In this document: piece after piece, positions 29,562-33,953 of the stretch | Layout: each line of letters opens with the position of its first letter | Position numbering within the stretch: the first letter of the stretch is position 1 | Source: Bacteroidaceae bacterium | Lineage (GTDB): Bacteria > Bacteroidota > Bacteroidia > Bacteroidales > Bacteroidaceae | Reading direction: 5' to 3' | DNA: 47,076 bases | NCBI GenBank assembly: GCA_016280445.1 | Contig: JAEEGS010000043.1 | Location: forward strand, 1 to 47,076 | The notes under the pieces: generated by a model | Database searches by the model: none | What the model saw: only the letters and a program-made list of their open reading frames with translations | Told to the model about the DNA's origin: nothing | Position numbers and translations under genes: made by a program

Positions 29562-30431
29562 ATGAGGCAATTAAAAATCACCAAGTCAATCACGAACCGT
29601 GAGAGTGCTTCGTTGGATAAGTACTTGCAGGAAATCGGTCGTGAGGAGTTAATCACTGTTGAAGAAGAAGTTGAACTGGCTGCGAAGATTCGCAAAGGCG
29701 GTGTCGAGGGCAGAAGAGCCTTGGAGAAACTGACTAGAGCGAACCTTCGTTTCGTCGTTTCTGTGGCCAAGCAGTACCAGAATCAGGGCTTGAGTTTGCC
29801 CGACCTCATCAACGAGGGTAATCTGGGTCTGATCAAGGCTGCGGAGAAGTTTGACGAGACGCGCGGTTTCAAGTTCATCAGTTATGCTGTGTGGTGGATT
29901 CGCCAGTCCATTCTGCAGGCATTGGCTGAGCAGAGCCGTATTGTGCGTCTGCCGCTGAACCAGGTGGGTTCGCTCAACAAGATTGGCAAGGCTTTCTCGA
30001 AGTTTGAACAGGAGAATGAGCGTCGCCCTTCGCCTGAAGAGTTGGCTGCACAGTTGGACTTGCCAGTGGACAAGGTGGCTGACACGATGAAGGTGAGCGG
30101 ACGTCACATCAGTGTGGACGCGCCTTTCGTGGAGGGTGAGGACAACAGTCTGCTCGACATCTTGTCGAACCCCGATTCTCCATCAGCAGACCGTATGCTG
30201 GTGACGGAGTCGTTGCAGAAGGAGATTGAGCGTGCGCTTGATACGCTGACGGTGCGCGAGAAGGAAATCATCAAGATGTTCTTTGGATTGGGCGAGCCGG
30301 AGAAGACGCTGGAGGAGATTGGCGAACGCTTCAATCTGACCCGCGAACGTGTGCGTCAGATTAAGGAGAAAGCCATCCGCCGTCTGCGCTCGCAGTCGAA
30401 GAGCAAATTGCTGAAGACGTATTTGGGATAA
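29562..30431 (+). CDS. rpoD: Primary RNA polymerase sigma factor (sigma-70, Bacteroidetes short form)
   Basis: The 289 residues lack the long N-terminal region 1.1 and insertion of proteobacterial sigma-70, as is usual for Bacteroidetes. Region 1.2 is [20 protein letters not shown]; region 2 has [39 protein letters not shown] and [17 protein letters not shown]; region 3 has [13 protein letters not shown]; region 4.2 ends with [18 protein letters not shown], the -35 (here -33) binding helix. It directs transcription from promoters such as those marked in this window. Its upstream region is unusually long and repeat-rich. Confidence 0.95.
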
Positions 30432-30465
30432 TTGACAATTGATGATTGACAATTGGTAATTGGGA
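30431..30465 (+). repeat. Short TTGACAATTG-type direct repeats after rpoD
   Basis: TTGACAATTGATGATTGACA and the following ATTGGTAATTGGGAA contain repeated ATTGACAATTG words. A similar word (AAAATTGACAATTGAGA) occurs at 15603-15619 between two other genes. It looks like a low-complexity intergenic sequence family, with no function visible. Confidence 0.4.
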
Positions 30466-30473
30466 ATGAGAGA

Positions 30474-30929
30474 ATGAAGAGATTTTTTGTATGGAGTGCC
30501 TTGCTGTGCCTGATGTTTGCTGTGCCTGCGTGTGTTTCGGCAAAGAAAAATCCTCAGGCTTATGGAAAGGGTAAGGCGACAATTTATATTTTTGGTGTGA
30601 GCCAGATGCTGACCGATAGTGTGGTGTACATCACCAACATCAATCAGGTGGACAGCATCGATTTGGAGCGGAAGACCAAGTTTCTGCCGTTTCGTTCGGA
30701 GTTTAGCCTGCAACTGAAAGAGTATATGGAGGGCCAGTTGGCTCTGAACCACCAGACAACCTGCGTGTTTTATGCTTCGAGCCGTAAGAAACTGTCGAAG
30801 AAATTCTACAAAATAAAGAAGCGTTATCTGGACGATCCTTACAAGAAGATTGTGATGGTGGATGAACGCTATTTCACATTCAAGCATCCTTTGGACGCTG
30901 TTTCTGGAGCAGCATCGGCGGAGGAATAG
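30474..30929 (+). CDS. Secreted protein of unknown function (151 residues)
   Basis: I do not recognise a family. I chose the ATG at 30474 (MKRFFVWSALLCLMFAVPAC) because it gives a clean signal peptide; an in-frame ATG lies 21 bases upstream. Cleavage may be lipoprotein-type at VPAC or after CVSA. The mature part is small and basic (KKNPQAYGKGKATIYIFGVS, then SSRKKLSKKFYKIKKRYLDD) and ends AVSGAASAEE. It lies 42 bases after rpoD and about 50 before the C11 peptidase start, so it may be the first accessory gene of that block and is a possible substrate or partner of the block's enzymes. Confidence 0.7.
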   Translation: MKRFFVWSALLCLMFAVPACVSAKKNPQAYGKGKATIYIFGVSQMLTDSVVYITNINQVDSIDLERKTKFLPFRSEFSLQLKEYMEGQLALNHQTTCVFYASSRKKLSKKFYKIKKRYLDDPYKKIVMVDERYFTFKHPLDAVSGAASAEE

Positions 30930-30981
30930 GAGGATGCGGCTGATGAGGAAAAGAGAACGGATACCGTGCCGATGCGTTGAC

Positions 30982-32268
30982 ATGAATGGTCGGCAAAGAA
31001 TATGGGCAGTTGTGACAATGGTTTTGGCCATCGTCGCAACTGGCTTGTTTTCGGCCTGTCAGAAAGATGAGGGGACGCAGCCACCGCAGTATGACACATC
31101 GATGGCCGAGAGCCGCACAGTGATGGTTTACATGGCGGCAGAGAACAGCATGTCGGACTATGTGAGCAGTGATATGCGTGAGATGCTGGATGGAATGGCC
31201 TCGAAAGTTTTCTATCCAGGTGACCGCATCGTGGTGTATGTGGACGATAACACGTTGCCGCGCATTTACTTGATTGACAACACCACAAACGTGACTTCGC
31301 CTGCTAACTTGCAACCGGTGAAGACGTATAGCGAAGATGTCAATTCGGCCTCGGCTGAGCAGTTGGGTGCCTTCGTTTCCTATGTGAAAACGAACGATAA
31401 GTATAAGGCCGATAGTTACGTGTTGGTGATGTGGTCGCATGGAACGGGCTGGATTCCCTCTGATTATAGCGGAGATGTTTCCAGCCAATCGTTGCGGAGA
31501 TCGTTTGGTGTGGACAACGGATATAATTATACAAGTGGCAACAAGATTGATGAAGGCTATAAGATGAACATCCCAGATATGGCGCGTGCCTTGGAAGAGC
31601 AGGGTGGAGTGGACGTCATTCTGTTTGATGCATGTTTCATGCAGACGGTGGAGGTGGCATACGAACTGCGTCACGCTGCGGCGCACATCATTTCTTCGCC
31701 TGCCGAGATTCCCGGATTAGGCGCTGACTATTCGACGATGGTGCCAGCCATGTTCCAGAAGGATGACTATGCCACAAAAATGTTGGAGGCTTATTACAAC
31801 AGGTATTGCAATGACCCTGCGTGCGGCATCGTGATTTCGAGTGTGAACACGGATGCGCTAGATTCCTTTGCTGCCTACGTGAAGCAGGTGGTGGCGTTGC
31901 ATCGCGATGACTTGTTGAATGCTGACTACACTCATGTGTTGGACTATCTGCTTTATGGCGTGGGGCGTTGGGGAACGGACAATCCAGATTGTTACGACAT
32001 GCAAGGGGTGATGAAGAATGTGATGAGTGAGGAGGAATTTGCCGTTTGGCAGGAGAAGGTATCTCAGGTGATAACCTGTATGCATACAAATTTTTGGTAT
32101 AGTGGTAGACGCGGAGGATGGAAAACGTATCAAATCGAAGACCCGTCGCAGTGTTGCGGTGTATCGATGTTTATCCCGCTGAACAAATATGCAACGAACT
32201 CAGCCCGTTTCAACGACACGTATCTTGATATGGAGTGGGGAAAAGATGTGTGGGGAATTGAGAATTAG
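30982..32268 (+). CDS. C11 (clostripain-type) cysteine peptidase, predicted lipoprotein
   Basis: The protein has 428 residues from the ATG at 30982, chosen because it gives the lipoprotein signal MNGRQRIWAVVTMVLAIVAT with lipobox FSAC; earlier in-frame ATGs (30934, 30943) would add a basic extension. The caspase-like fold begins with RTVMVYMAAENSM. The catalytic pair is His153 in VLVMWSHGTGWIP and Cys218 in VILFDACFMQTVEVAYEL, both canonical for C11. PAEIPGLGADYS follows, as in the family. C11 peptidases cut after Arg or Lys and can activate partner proteins (fragipain activates fragilysin). It should face the periplasm or surface. It lies 10 bases before the HPr-kinase-like gene. Confidence 0.87.
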   Translation: MNGRQRIWAVVTMVLAIVATGLFSACQKDEGTQPPQYDTSMAESRTVMVYMAAENSMSDYVSSDMREMLDGMASKVFYPGDRIVVYVDDNTLPRIYLIDNTTNVTSPANLQPVKTYSEDVNSASAEQLGAFVSYVKTNDKYKADSYVLVMWSHGTGWIPSDYSGDVSSQSLRRSFGVDNGYNYTSGNKIDEGYKMNIPDMARALEEQGGVDVILFDACFMQTVEVAYELRHAAAHIISSPAEIPGLGADYSTMVPAMFQKDDYATKMLEAYYNRYCNDPACGIVISSVNTDALDSFAAYVKQVVALHRDDLLNADYTHVLDYLLYGVGRWGTDNPDCYDMQGVMKNVMSEEEFAVWQEKVSQVITCMHTNFWYSGRRGGWKTYQIEDPSQCCGVSMFIPLNKYATNSARFNDTYLDMEWGKDVWGIEN

Positions 32269-32278
32269 AAAACTGACA

Positions 32279-33178
32279 ATGAAGAAAGTTTATTATAGAG
32301 TAGGGCGACACACGTATAGTGTCTGTTTCAAAGACGATAAGAACACGACGGATTTGCTGCCATCGAGTGAACCTTTCCGTTTGGACGATGAGCCAGCGGA
32401 GCGTGAACCTTTGCTGTTTGAACTGACGGTGGATGACAATTGGCGACCTGCACAGAAAGGTTCGGAGATTGGACAGTTTGACTGTGGTGGAAACAATCAT
32501 GGCGTGTACAGATTGGACGATGGTGCTTACCAGATTCAGGTCAGCGATGTGTCGGACAGGCAATGTTGTCTACTGGAGGCGAAGTCCGACTTCTCTTCGG
32601 CTCAGGTGTGTCTGAATGGTGACTGGGTGATGCGCAACTTCGGCTTGAACAACGCGCTGATGATGATGTATGCTTTTGCAGGTGCCGACAAGATGACGGT
32701 ACTGATGCATGCGTCGGTGGTGAGGAAGGACGGACGTGGCTATTTGTGCCTTGGTGTGAGTGGAACGGGTAAGAGCACTCATACATCGAACTGGCTCAAA
32801 TATGTGCCTGGCACCGATTTGATGAACGATGATAACCCTGTGGTGCGCGTGTGCGACGATGGAGTGGCGCGTGTGTTTGGTTCGCCTTGGAGCGGTAAGA
32901 CCCCTTGCTACCGTAATGTGGAGGCACCTATTGGTGGCTTTTTGCAACTGGAGCAGGCTCCTTATAACAATATCAGCCGCATGCGGGTTGTGGATGCTTT
33001 TGCTTCATTGCTGCCTTCATGCTCGGTGATGAAGTGGGACAGACGCGACTATGTGGGAACATGCGACACGGTGTCGCGCTTGCTGGAACTGGTGCCTGTG
33101 TTCTTTTTGAAAAATTTGCCTGACGAGGATGCTGTGCGGATGAGTTATGAGGCGATGACAGGAAAGGCGTATGCATAA
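32279..33178 (+). CDS. HPr kinase/PEP carboxykinase-like P-loop protein
   Basis: The protein has 299 residues from the ATG at 32279 (MKKVYYRVGRHTYSV); this start sits after the upstream stop, while the longer frame overlaps the C11 gene. The N-terminal half (1-135) has no domain that I can name. The C-terminal half has Walker A GVSGTGKST (159-167), then DLMNDDNPVVRV, GSPWSGKTPCY and GGFLQLEQAP, the layout of HprK-like kinases that occur beside PqqD-like proteins. HprK-like kinases in lasso peptide clusters phosphorylate a precursor; here the target is unknown. It overlaps the S26-like gene by 8 bases. Confidence 0.75.
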   Translation: MKKVYYRVGRHTYSVCFKDDKNTTDLLPSSEPFRLDDEPAEREPLLFELTVDDNWRPAQKGSEIGQFDCGGNNHGVYRLDDGAYQIQVSDVSDRQCCLLEAKSDFSSAQVCLNGDWVMRNFGLNNALMMMYAFAGADKMTVLMHASVVRKDGRGYLCLGVSGTGKSTHTSNWLKYVPGTDLMNDDNPVVRVCDDGVARVFGSPWSGKTPCYRNVEAPIGGFLQLEQAPYNNISRMRVVDAFASLLPSCSVMKWDRRDYVGTCDTVSRLLELVPVFFLKNLPDEDAVRMSYEAMTGKAYA

Positions 33179-33671
33179 ACTGTCGGTTGACAACAAGGAG
33201 TTCCTTCCGATTGTGGTGGAAAGAGTGAGGGCAGGACAGTTGGCCACCATTATGGCGCGTGGTAACAGCATGCGCCCGTTTATTGAGGACGGTCGCGACA
33301 AACTGGTGTTAGGCAAACCTGACCATGTGAAGGTGGGCGATGTGATTCTGGCCGAAGTGGAGGAGGGGCATTTTGTGTGTCACCGCATTGTACAGATGGC
33401 TGATGGGATGGTGACTATGCGTGGTGACGGTAATCCTGTAGGCACAGAGGTCTTTCCTGAAGCGAATGTGCGGGCGAAACTGGTGCAAGTGATTAGGAAA
33501 GGGAAAACGTACACGCTGGACACATCGAGAAAGTGGAAGGTGTATTCGGCTGTGTGGCCAAAATTGCTCCCTGTGCGGCGATATCTGTTGGCTCTGTACC
33601 GTTTGCTTTGGCTGCATCAGTGGCCGGAACGATGGACAAAATCGCGCGCTGGACAATCAATGAAAACGTAA
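33171..33671 (+). CDS. S24/S26-family peptidase-like protein with Ser/His arrangement
   Basis: This is a 166-residue protein with the signal-peptidase/LexA fold: MARGNSMRPFIEDGRDKLVL places the nucleophile at Ser33, VGDVILAEVEEG follows, VCHRIV has His71 where signal peptidase I has Lys, and MRGDGNP (83-89) corresponds to the GDN box. A His general base is typical of ER-type and SipW signal peptidases. No N-terminal membrane helix is seen; a hydrophobic, basic segment (LLPVRRYLLALYRLLW) near the C-terminus may bind membrane. It is embedded between the HprK-like and PqqD-like genes and could process the same peptide. Confidence 0.75.
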   Translation: MHKLSVDNKEFLPIVVERVRAGQLATIMARGNSMRPFIEDGRDKLVLGKPDHVKVGDVILAEVEEGHFVCHRIVQMADGMVTMRGDGNPVGTEVFPEANVRAKLVQVIRKGKTYTLDTSRKWKVYSAVWPKLLPVRRYLLALYRLLWLHQWPERWTKSRAGQSMKT

Positions 33672-33686
33672 CACATTATTTATAAT

Positions 33687-33953
33687 ATGAGAATCAAAAA
33701 AGGTTTTGAATTGCGCAATGTTTGTGGTGAGAACATCATCATTGCACATGGTTTGGAGAACATCGACTTCACAAAGGTCATCACGCTGAACGAGTCAGCG
33801 GCATTCCTCTGGAACAAGGTGGTAGATAAAGACTTCACCGAACAGGAGATGGTGGAGATGCTCCTGGCAGAATATGAGGTGGAGAAGCAGACAGCCGAAG
33901 AGGATGTGAAAGCGCTGGTGACCTCGTGGAAAGAAACAGGAATGGTGGACTGA
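33687..33953 (+). CDS. PqqD-like peptide-binding protein (RRE fold)
   Basis: This is an 88-residue protein of the PqqD family: [20 protein letters not shown], then [20 protein letters not shown] and a helical end with [19 protein letters not shown]. The [10 protein letters not shown] helix is the family hallmark. PqqD domains act as recognition elements that bind the leader of a ribosomally made peptide and bring it to modifying enzymes. It follows the S26-like gene by 15 bases and precedes ung by 1 base. No radical SAM enzyme or obvious short precursor gene is adjacent. Confidence 0.85.

What the first reader, a model, noticed from the sequence alone, without database searches (positions are those of the whole stretch)
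30474..33953. Compact HprK-like / S26-like / PqqD block with a C11 lipoprotein peptidase: possible undescribed peptide-processing system
Seen: five plus-strand genes with gaps of about 50, 10, -8 and 15 bases: a secreted basic protein, a C11 peptidase (His153/Cys218), an HPr-kinase-like P-loop protein (Walker A at 159-167), an S24/S26 peptidase-like protein and an 88-residue PqqD-like protein. Known: PqqD domains bind leader peptides in ribosomally made peptide pathways; HprK-like kinases phosphorylate lasso-peptide precursors in some clusters; C11 peptidases activate partner proteins by cutting after Arg/Lys. Inference: together they could recognise, phosphorylate, cleave and mature a peptide or protein, yet no lasso cyclase, radical SAM enzyme or precursor is present. 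The 151-residue secreted protein, or an unlinked gene, may be the substrate.
Basis: partly seen in the sequence, partly recalled or inferred. Interest (0 to 1): 0.75.

Follow-up and report, generated by a model that had tools for sequence, protein, structure and literature searches.

The report
Peptide-tailoring gene trio in Bacteroidales
Three neighbouring genes of a gut-type bacterium (a kinase, a protease-like protein and a leader-binding protein) look like the core of an undescribed machine that modifies small peptides, whose likely peptide genes are scattered over the genome, often beside genes for secreted or surface proteins.

Summary
The block is real, but only its last three genes form the unit: an HprK-like kinase (HPK, 32279-33178), an S24/S26-like peptidase (33171-33671) and PqqD (33687-33953). 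They lie within 6 kb on one strand in 67 of 77 named loci and 29 of 40 order-wide loci. The secreted 151-residue protein and the C11 peptidase are a separate pair that also occurs away from the trio.

Order-wide, an ABC exporter accompanies HPK in 27 of 40 loci and a same-strand NTP_transf_5 protein in 12 of 40. In 11 of 40 a 42-76-residue peptide with a YxxP leader precedes HPK. Such peptides track HPK: 33 of 36 peptide-bearing genomes among 295 carry it, and 122 of 125 among 199 family genomes. The window's genome has three, all unlinked.

HPK keeps the lasso-kinase His-Lys-Asp-Asp set, but the lasso protease family PF13471 occurs in only 4 of 43 HPK genomes, against 23 of 28 genomes with lasso-type kinases. 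Best reading: a non-lasso, leader-guided system that phosphorylates, trims and exports peptides. The link between peptides and enzymes is well supported; the chemistry is inferred.

The parts
32279..33178 (+). HprK-like kinase (HPK), 299 aa; His144, P-loop with Lys165, Asp184-Asp185
   Evidence: H, K, D, D invariant in 26 aligned homologues (numbered one higher there); positions; fold matches PEPCK and HprK/P
33171..33671 (+). S24/S26-type peptidase-like protein, 166 aa, Ser33, His71, Asp86; overlaps HPK by 8 bases; proposed leader peptidase
   Evidence: PF00717; S33, H71, D86 invariant in 23 aligned homologues; fold matches LexA C-domain, SipA and signal peptidases
33687..33953 (+). PqqD-family leader-binding protein, 88 aa; the only PF05402 match found in this genome
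   Evidence: PF05402 7.6e-16; single match in own genome; best PDB sequence match is TfuB1, 6jx3, 4.6e-7
30982..32268 (+). C11 (clostripain family) lipoprotein peptidase: neighbour, judged NOT part of the system
   Evidence: PF03415; occurs with rpoD and the secreted protein without HPK in L195 and L197; absent beside the trio in Paraprevotella and Alloprevotella loci
30474..30929 (+). secreted 151-residue protein: neighbour, judged NOT part of the system
   Evidence: found in 5 of 295 order genomes, all of the window's family, two of them without HPK

Best explanation
The three genes are the conserved core of a leader-guided peptide modification system that is not a lasso peptide pathway. PqqD binds the YxxP leader of small precursor peptides (42 to about 80 residues); HPK phosphorylates the bound precursor, most likely at the Ser/Thr found about 20 residues after the leader Tyr; an NTP_transf_5 protein may add a further group to the phosphate; the S24/S26-like peptidase removes the leader near that site; an ABC exporter carries the product out. 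In the window's genome exporter, nucleotidyltransferases and precursors lie elsewhere. Shown by computation: genes, conserved motifs, gene neighbourhoods, genome-level co-occurrence. Inferred: every binding, phosphorylation, cleavage and export step, and the role of the product at the cell surface.
For: Conserved neighbourhood: S26-like and PqqD within 6 kb of HPK on its strand in 67 of 77 named loci and 29 of 40 order-wide loci; ABC exporter in 27 of 40, same-strand NTP_transf_5 in 12 of 40 (identities). A YxxP peptide gene lies directly upstream of HPK in 11 of 40 order-wide loci. Peptides track HPK: order sample 33 both, 3 peptide only, 10 HPK only, 249 neither; without the 14 genomes that supplied model rows 19/3/10/249, Fisher p 2e-19; family sample 122/3/38/36, p 1e-15. 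HPK keeps the His-Lys-Asp-Asp set reported as catalytic for lasso tailoring kinases (PMC9266682, passages). PqqD's best solved match is the lasso leader-binding protein TfuB1. Ser/Thr at position +20 from the Tyr in 48 of 62 collected peptides, next to the position (+19) of Ser3 that kinase BsfK phosphorylates with help of the PqqD-like BsfB1 (PMC10368454, abstract and passages). S26-like has invariant Ser, His, Asp. Own genome: one PqqD, three peptides, two NTP_transf_5, one clear exporter homologue, no PF13471.
Against: No biochemistry. The first peptide rows were picked by a YxxP pattern, so Tyr and Pro conservation is circular. 10 of 43 (order) and 38 of 160 (family) HPK genomes show no peptide at E 0.01; 3 peptide genomes in each sample lack HPK. 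S26-like is not beside HPK in 5 of 8 further family stretches (L227-L231). In the 77 named loci the exporter is within 6 kb of HPK in 1 and a same-strand NTP_transf_5 in none. Only 1 of 62 peptides ends in Ser, the site used in paeninodin. In PMC10368454 Ala changes of the YxxPxL residues did not stop phosphorylation of BsfA. The two samples are not corrected for ancestry beyond family level.
Confidence: 0.68

Rival explanations
1. A scattered or partly lost lasso pathway: the peptides are lasso precursors and protease and cyclase lie elsewhere in the genome.
For: YxxP leader, PqqD, HPK-like kinase, NTP_transf_5 and ABC exporter all occur in lasso clusters of the same order and in described clusters. 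A 37-residue peptide in the lasso-type locus L242 weakly matches the peptide model (E 0.03).
Against: PF13471 in 4 of 43 HPK genomes (3 over cut-off, none on the trio's contig stretch) against 23 of 28 genomes with lasso-type kinases; none in the window's genome. Thr at +15 and Gly at +17, which the lasso frame of PMC10368454 would need, are not among the six commonest residues there. The cyclase family itself was not searched.
Confidence: 0.07
2. HPK and PqqD act on another substrate (for example a surface-polysaccharide or regulatory protein), and the YxxP peptides merely share ancestry with HPK-bearing lineages.
For: Five family stretches place PqqD, NTP_transf_5 and HPK among glycosyltransferase and export genes (L227-L231; gene identities read by eye). 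Many HPK genomes lack a detected peptide.
Against: Peptide genes lie immediately upstream of HPK in 11 of 40 order-wide loci from many families, peptides are in 0 of the 28 lasso-kinase genomes chosen, and the association holds inside one family.
Confidence: 0.15
3. The first reader's five-gene system, with the secreted 151-residue protein as substrate and the C11 peptidase as activator.
For: The five genes are adjacent in the window and in most close relatives.
Against: rpoD, secreted protein and C11 occur without HPK in L195 and L197; the secreted protein is in 5 of 295 order genomes only, HPK in 43; the trio stands without both in the order-wide loci outside the family.
Confidence: 0.03

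Closest known systems
Lasso peptide clusters with tailoring kinase (paeninodin PadeK, pseudomycoidin PsmK/PsmN, BsfK)
   Same: PqqD-like leader binder, HprK-like kinase with His-Lys-Asp-Asp, nucleotidyltransferase-like protein, ABC exporter, YxxP leader
   Different: No PF13471 leader protease at the locus and in 39 of 43 genomes none at all; an S24/S26-like protein instead; precursors mostly dispersed; no conserved Thr at +15 or Gly at +17
NCBIfam HPr-rel-A system (HprK-related kinase A with PqqD_rel_X)
   Same: HprK-like kinase paired with a PqqD-like protein (models named)
   Different: Scores 22.7 against cut-off 200 and 15.3 against 35
SynChlorMet cassette (ScmC, ScmD)
   Same: kinase-like ScmC and PqqD-like ScmD both match weakly
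   Different: 24.1 against cut-off 125 and 17.9 against 100
Signal peptidase I / S24 (LexA, SipA) fold
   Same: fold and Ser, His, Asp positions
   Different: no curated signal-peptidase model over its cut-off (36.6 against 51.85); role as leader peptidase is inferred

Membership tests
Lasso peptide pathway | PqqD-like leader-binding protein (B1) | tested here: met
   PF05402 7.6e-16; TfuB1 match 4.6e-7
Lasso peptide pathway | transglutaminase-like leader protease B2 (PF13471) | tested here: not met
   own genome none; 4 of 43 HPK genomes, none on the trio's stretch; control 23 of 28 lasso-kinase genomes
Lasso peptide pathway | Asn-synthetase-like cyclase (C) | not tested
   no family search was run; proteins of about 610-640 aa that look like it were seen by eye only in lasso-type loci L238, L239, L242, L243
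Lasso peptide pathway | precursor with YxxPxL leader, Thr at -2 and Gly at core position 1 | tested here: not met
   Tyr and Pro by construction, aliphatic residue at +5 in 47 of 62, but Thr at +15 and Gly at +17 not among the six commonest residues
Lasso tailoring kinase (HprK-like) | His-Lys-Asp-Asp catalytic set | tested here: met
   invariant in 26 of 26 aligned rows; motif as reported in PMC9266682
Lasso tailoring kinase (HprK-like) | phosphorylates the precursor peptide | not testable with these tools
   needs biochemistry
HPr-rel-A system | NCBIfam cut-offs for kinase A and PqqD_rel_X | tested here: not met
   22.7 against 200; 15.3 against 35
SynChlorMet cassette | NCBIfam cut-offs for ScmC and ScmD | tested here: not met
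   24.1 against 125; 17.9 against 100
S24/S26 peptidase | Pfam S24 cut-off and catalytic Ser | tested here: met
   25.6 bits against 23.3; Ser33 invariant in 23 of 23 rows; that His replaces Lys as in SipW or archaeal enzymes is recalled

The most novel reading that the evidence does not exclude
A new class of ribosomally made, linear phosphopeptides (perhaps phospho-sugar peptides) common in Bacteroidales: one central PqqD/HprK-like/S26-like machine serves many dispersed precursors, each encoded with its own type IX-secreted or lipoprotein partner, so that the finished acidic, Trp-ended peptide acts with, tags or anchors that partner at the cell surface.
Probability: 0.4. Interest if true: 0.9.

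Novelty: new variant of a known kind. Interest (0 to 1): 0.78.

Why it matters
If right, lasso-type leader recognition and peptide phosphorylation exist as a free-standing system without the lasso fold, in 160 of 199 sampled genomes of the window's family (HPK at E 1e-15), including cultured Paraprevotella and Alloprevotella. Its precursors are short, were matched by no Pfam or NCBIfam model over a cut-off where tested (5 peptides), and lie away from the enzymes, so cluster-based mining would miss them. Their neighbours, type IX-tailed proteins and lipoproteins, point to a role at the cell surface. The substrate question becomes directly testable with one peptide, PqqD and HPK.

Tried and rejected
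Secreted protein and C11 as members: rejected. In L194 (G053) the secreted protein had no rpoD or C11 in the 3.3 kb held, so its link to rpoD is 3 of 4 loci there.

Lasso pathway as such: rejected on PF13471, with the cyclase untested.

Anti-phage defence: PADLOC gave nothing useful for six proteins; PqqD matched PDC-M22A at 0.0013 and the exporter only ATPase-type models.

Window scan for a YxxP peptide beside the trio: one unrelated small frame at 1904-2011, so no linked precursor in the window.

PDB sequence search with HPK gave nothing meaningful.

Exceptions with peptides but no HPK: stretches of G143 and G250 show other PqqD gene rows without HPK; G112 and the family exceptions G340, G350, G373 were not looked at.

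The HPK threshold in the order sample (E 1.6e-28) was set by me at a gap in the list; the next hit, G205 at 2.1e-19, has no peptide. The profile gave 211 of 295 at E 0.001, mostly short matches to other P-loop proteins.

The tail pattern used for family-type secretion tails was written after I had seen the tails.

Literature: searches in an open-licence library. Nothing listed describes this system, but most subscription papers are not held, so absence in print is weakly supported.
Full report
Observation. The five genes are present as described, with gaps of 52, 10, -8 and 15 bases. The window is contig 58 of a 3.07 Mb, 84-contig genome; its nearest named relatives are Bacteroidaceae/Prevotellaceae MAGs. 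Families: C11, S24 and PqqD match over their Pfam cut-offs; the secreted protein and HPK do not match any.

Which genes belong together. A profile-free search found HPK in 42 of 295 genomes of the order; a scan of named genomes gave 77 loci. I fetched wider DNA for 40 of the 41 other genomes. S26-like and PqqD genes lie within 6 kb of HPK on its strand in 67 of 77 named and 29 of 40 order-wide loci; some misses are at contig ends. The order of the genes varies. In five of eight further family stretches PqqD, NTP_transf_5 and HPK stand together but S26-like is not in the stretch (L227-L231); those eight were chosen because peptide and HPK hits lay close on one contig. The secreted protein occurs in 5 of 295 order genomes, all five of the window's family; G053 and G145 lack HPK at E 1e-15 and in G222 it lies about 83 kb from HPK. 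In L195 and L197 rpoD, the secreted protein and C11 stand together without HPK. These two genes are therefore neighbours, not members.

Partners. Two protein clusters recur beside the trio in the order-wide loci. Examples are an ABC exporter (PF00664, PF00005) and NTP_transf_5 proteins (PF14907). The exporter is within 6 kb of HPK in 27 of 40 order-wide loci, a same-strand NTP_transf_5 in 12 of 40; in the 77 named loci, mostly close relatives of the window, the numbers are 1 and 0. The window's genome has them elsewhere: an exporter homologue on contig 3 (5e-113; next best 5e-29) and NTP_transf_5 on contigs 23 and 31.

Precursor candidates. Looking for small frames with a YxxP motif near HPK, I found one directly upstream of it (within 540 bases) in ten order-wide loci; the later model added L124, giving 11 of 40. 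Tyr and Pro conservation among the first rows is by construction. One of these, in L110, matches the NCBIfam paeninodin-family precursor model at E 0.042, below its cut-off. A model of the first 13 peptides, none from the window's genome, found two in that genome, at 0.0024 and 0.017. With those added (16 rows), three are found at E 0.01 or better, on contigs 18, 25 and 33; only the last (6e-5) is not a row of the model. They are 57 to 70 residues long. None is near the trio.

Co-occurrence. Order sample of 295: HPK strong (E 1.6e-28 or better, my threshold) in 43, peptides (E 0.01) in 36, both in 33, peptide only 3 (G112, G143, G250), HPK only 10, neither 249, Fisher p 2e-31; leaving out the 14 genomes that supplied rows, 19/3/10/249, p 2e-19. 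Family sample of 199: HPK (E 1e-15) in 160, peptides in 125, both in 122, peptide only 3, HPK only 38, neither 36, p 1e-15; nearly the same without G000 and G222. Some genomes carry many peptides: 14 in G049, 11 each in G394 and G395. These tests are not corrected for ancestry beyond the family level.

Not a lasso pathway. The profile also gave weak, short matches to other kinases near PqqD genes. I took 28 such genomes as control; PF13471 was found in 23 of the 28 and in 4 of the 43 HPK genomes (G280, G042, G150 over cut-off, G034 below); in none of the four on the trio's contig stretch, and not in the window's genome. In eight control stretches seven show kinase and PqqD together, with a protein of about 140 aa next to PqqD in most and, in L238, L239, L242 and L243, one of 614 to 635 aa that looks like a lasso cyclase (by eye). 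None of the 28 control genomes has a YxxP peptide by the model. L242 holds a 37-residue peptide ending in Ser that matches weakly (E 0.03). The cyclase family itself was not searched.

What the enzymes could do. HPK: His, P-loop Lys and two Asp are invariant in 26 rows chosen from 46 available, the set reported as essential in lasso tailoring kinases in the review PMC9266682 (passages). The model (pLDDT 94.8) matches PEPCK (6e-8) and HprK/P (1jb1, 7.7e-5). S26-like: Ser33, His71, Asp86 invariant in 23 chosen rows; the model (pLDDT 89.5) matches LexA C-domains, SipA and signal peptidases. PqqD: best PDB sequence match TfuB1. The same review reports that PsmK phosphorylates and PsmN, an annotated nucleotidyltransferase, installs hexose on the phosphoserine of pseudomycoidin. 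In PMC10368454 (abstract and passages) kinase BsfK phosphorylates Ser3 of the core, BsfB1 speeds this up, and YxxPxL spans -17 to -12; that puts Ser3 at +19 from the Tyr. In 62 distinct collected peptides Ser/Thr stands at +20 in 48, Glu at +6 in 46, Trp within the last 8 residues in 37; no Cys follows +24. Of the 48, 40 have Ala, Gly, Ser, Thr or Met at +18, which would suit a signal-peptidase-like cut after +20 (inference). So +20 may be the phosphorylation site, the cleavage site, or both in turn. Against a simple picture: Ala changes of the YxxPxL residues did not stop BsfA phosphorylation, and only 1 of 62 peptides ends in Ser.

Where the precursors lie. Of 30 family-type peptides examined, 19 have a same-strand gene within 150 bases upstream and 17 of those end in a tail such as GIYIVNGKKVLVK; 8 of 864 background genes fit the pattern, one of them itself next to a peptide (pattern written after seeing tails). 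Of ten upstream tails scanned, the six order-level ones are type IX type A sorting domains over cut-off (TIGR04183); the four family-type ones, the window genome's contig 25 neighbour included, match no model. About ten others precede genes whose start looks like a lipoprotein or signal peptide (crude rule and by eye). In five family stretches (L227-L231) PqqD, NTP_transf_5 and HPK stand among glycosyltransferase-like genes, with export-like genes beside HPK in four (by eye).

Verdict. The trio is best read as the core of a free-standing, leader-guided peptide phosphorylation, trimming and export system with dispersed precursors. The association of peptides and enzymes is well supported; the chemistry and the role of the product are inferred. 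It works like the tailoring half of a kinase-bearing lasso pathway but fails the lasso membership test on the protease and on the precursor core. The paper searches listed no description of it; PMC10352776, on peptide clusters in Bacteroidales, mentions PqqD once, in its reference list, and no such kinase in the passages seen.

Noticed in passing
window 29562-32268; L195, L196, L197: rpoD, the secreted 151-residue protein and often C11 form their own conserved stretch in the window's family; the secreted protein has no known family.
   Followed up: partly
L238, L239, L240-L244: Lasso-type loci of Bacteroidales with a sulfotransferase-like gene (WLxSYPKSGNTW, by eye) in L239-L244 and, in L238 and L239, a row of short proteins beginning like MDxFxGEIRxF; names recalled, not tested.
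   Followed up: no
L227-L231: PqqD, NTP_transf_5 and HPK stand inside glycosyltransferase-like gene rows, with export-like genes beside HPK in L227-L230 (by eye), and a YxxP peptide a few kb on.
   Followed up: partly
L236 2680-5352; L237 4059-7498: Another PqqD gene row: PqqD followed by proteins of about 350 and 450 aa (TGLNNTDNPGPG motif), in two genomes that have YxxP peptides but no HPK.
   Followed up: no
G049 (14 peptide matches); G394 and G395 (11 each): Large expansions of YxxP peptides in single genomes.
   Followed up: no
upstream genes in L200, L204, L206, L208, L209, L211, L213, L216-L219, L222: A recurrent C-terminal tail (GIYIVNGKKVLVK type) that matched no Pfam or NCBIfam sorting model in the four scanned.
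   Followed up: partly
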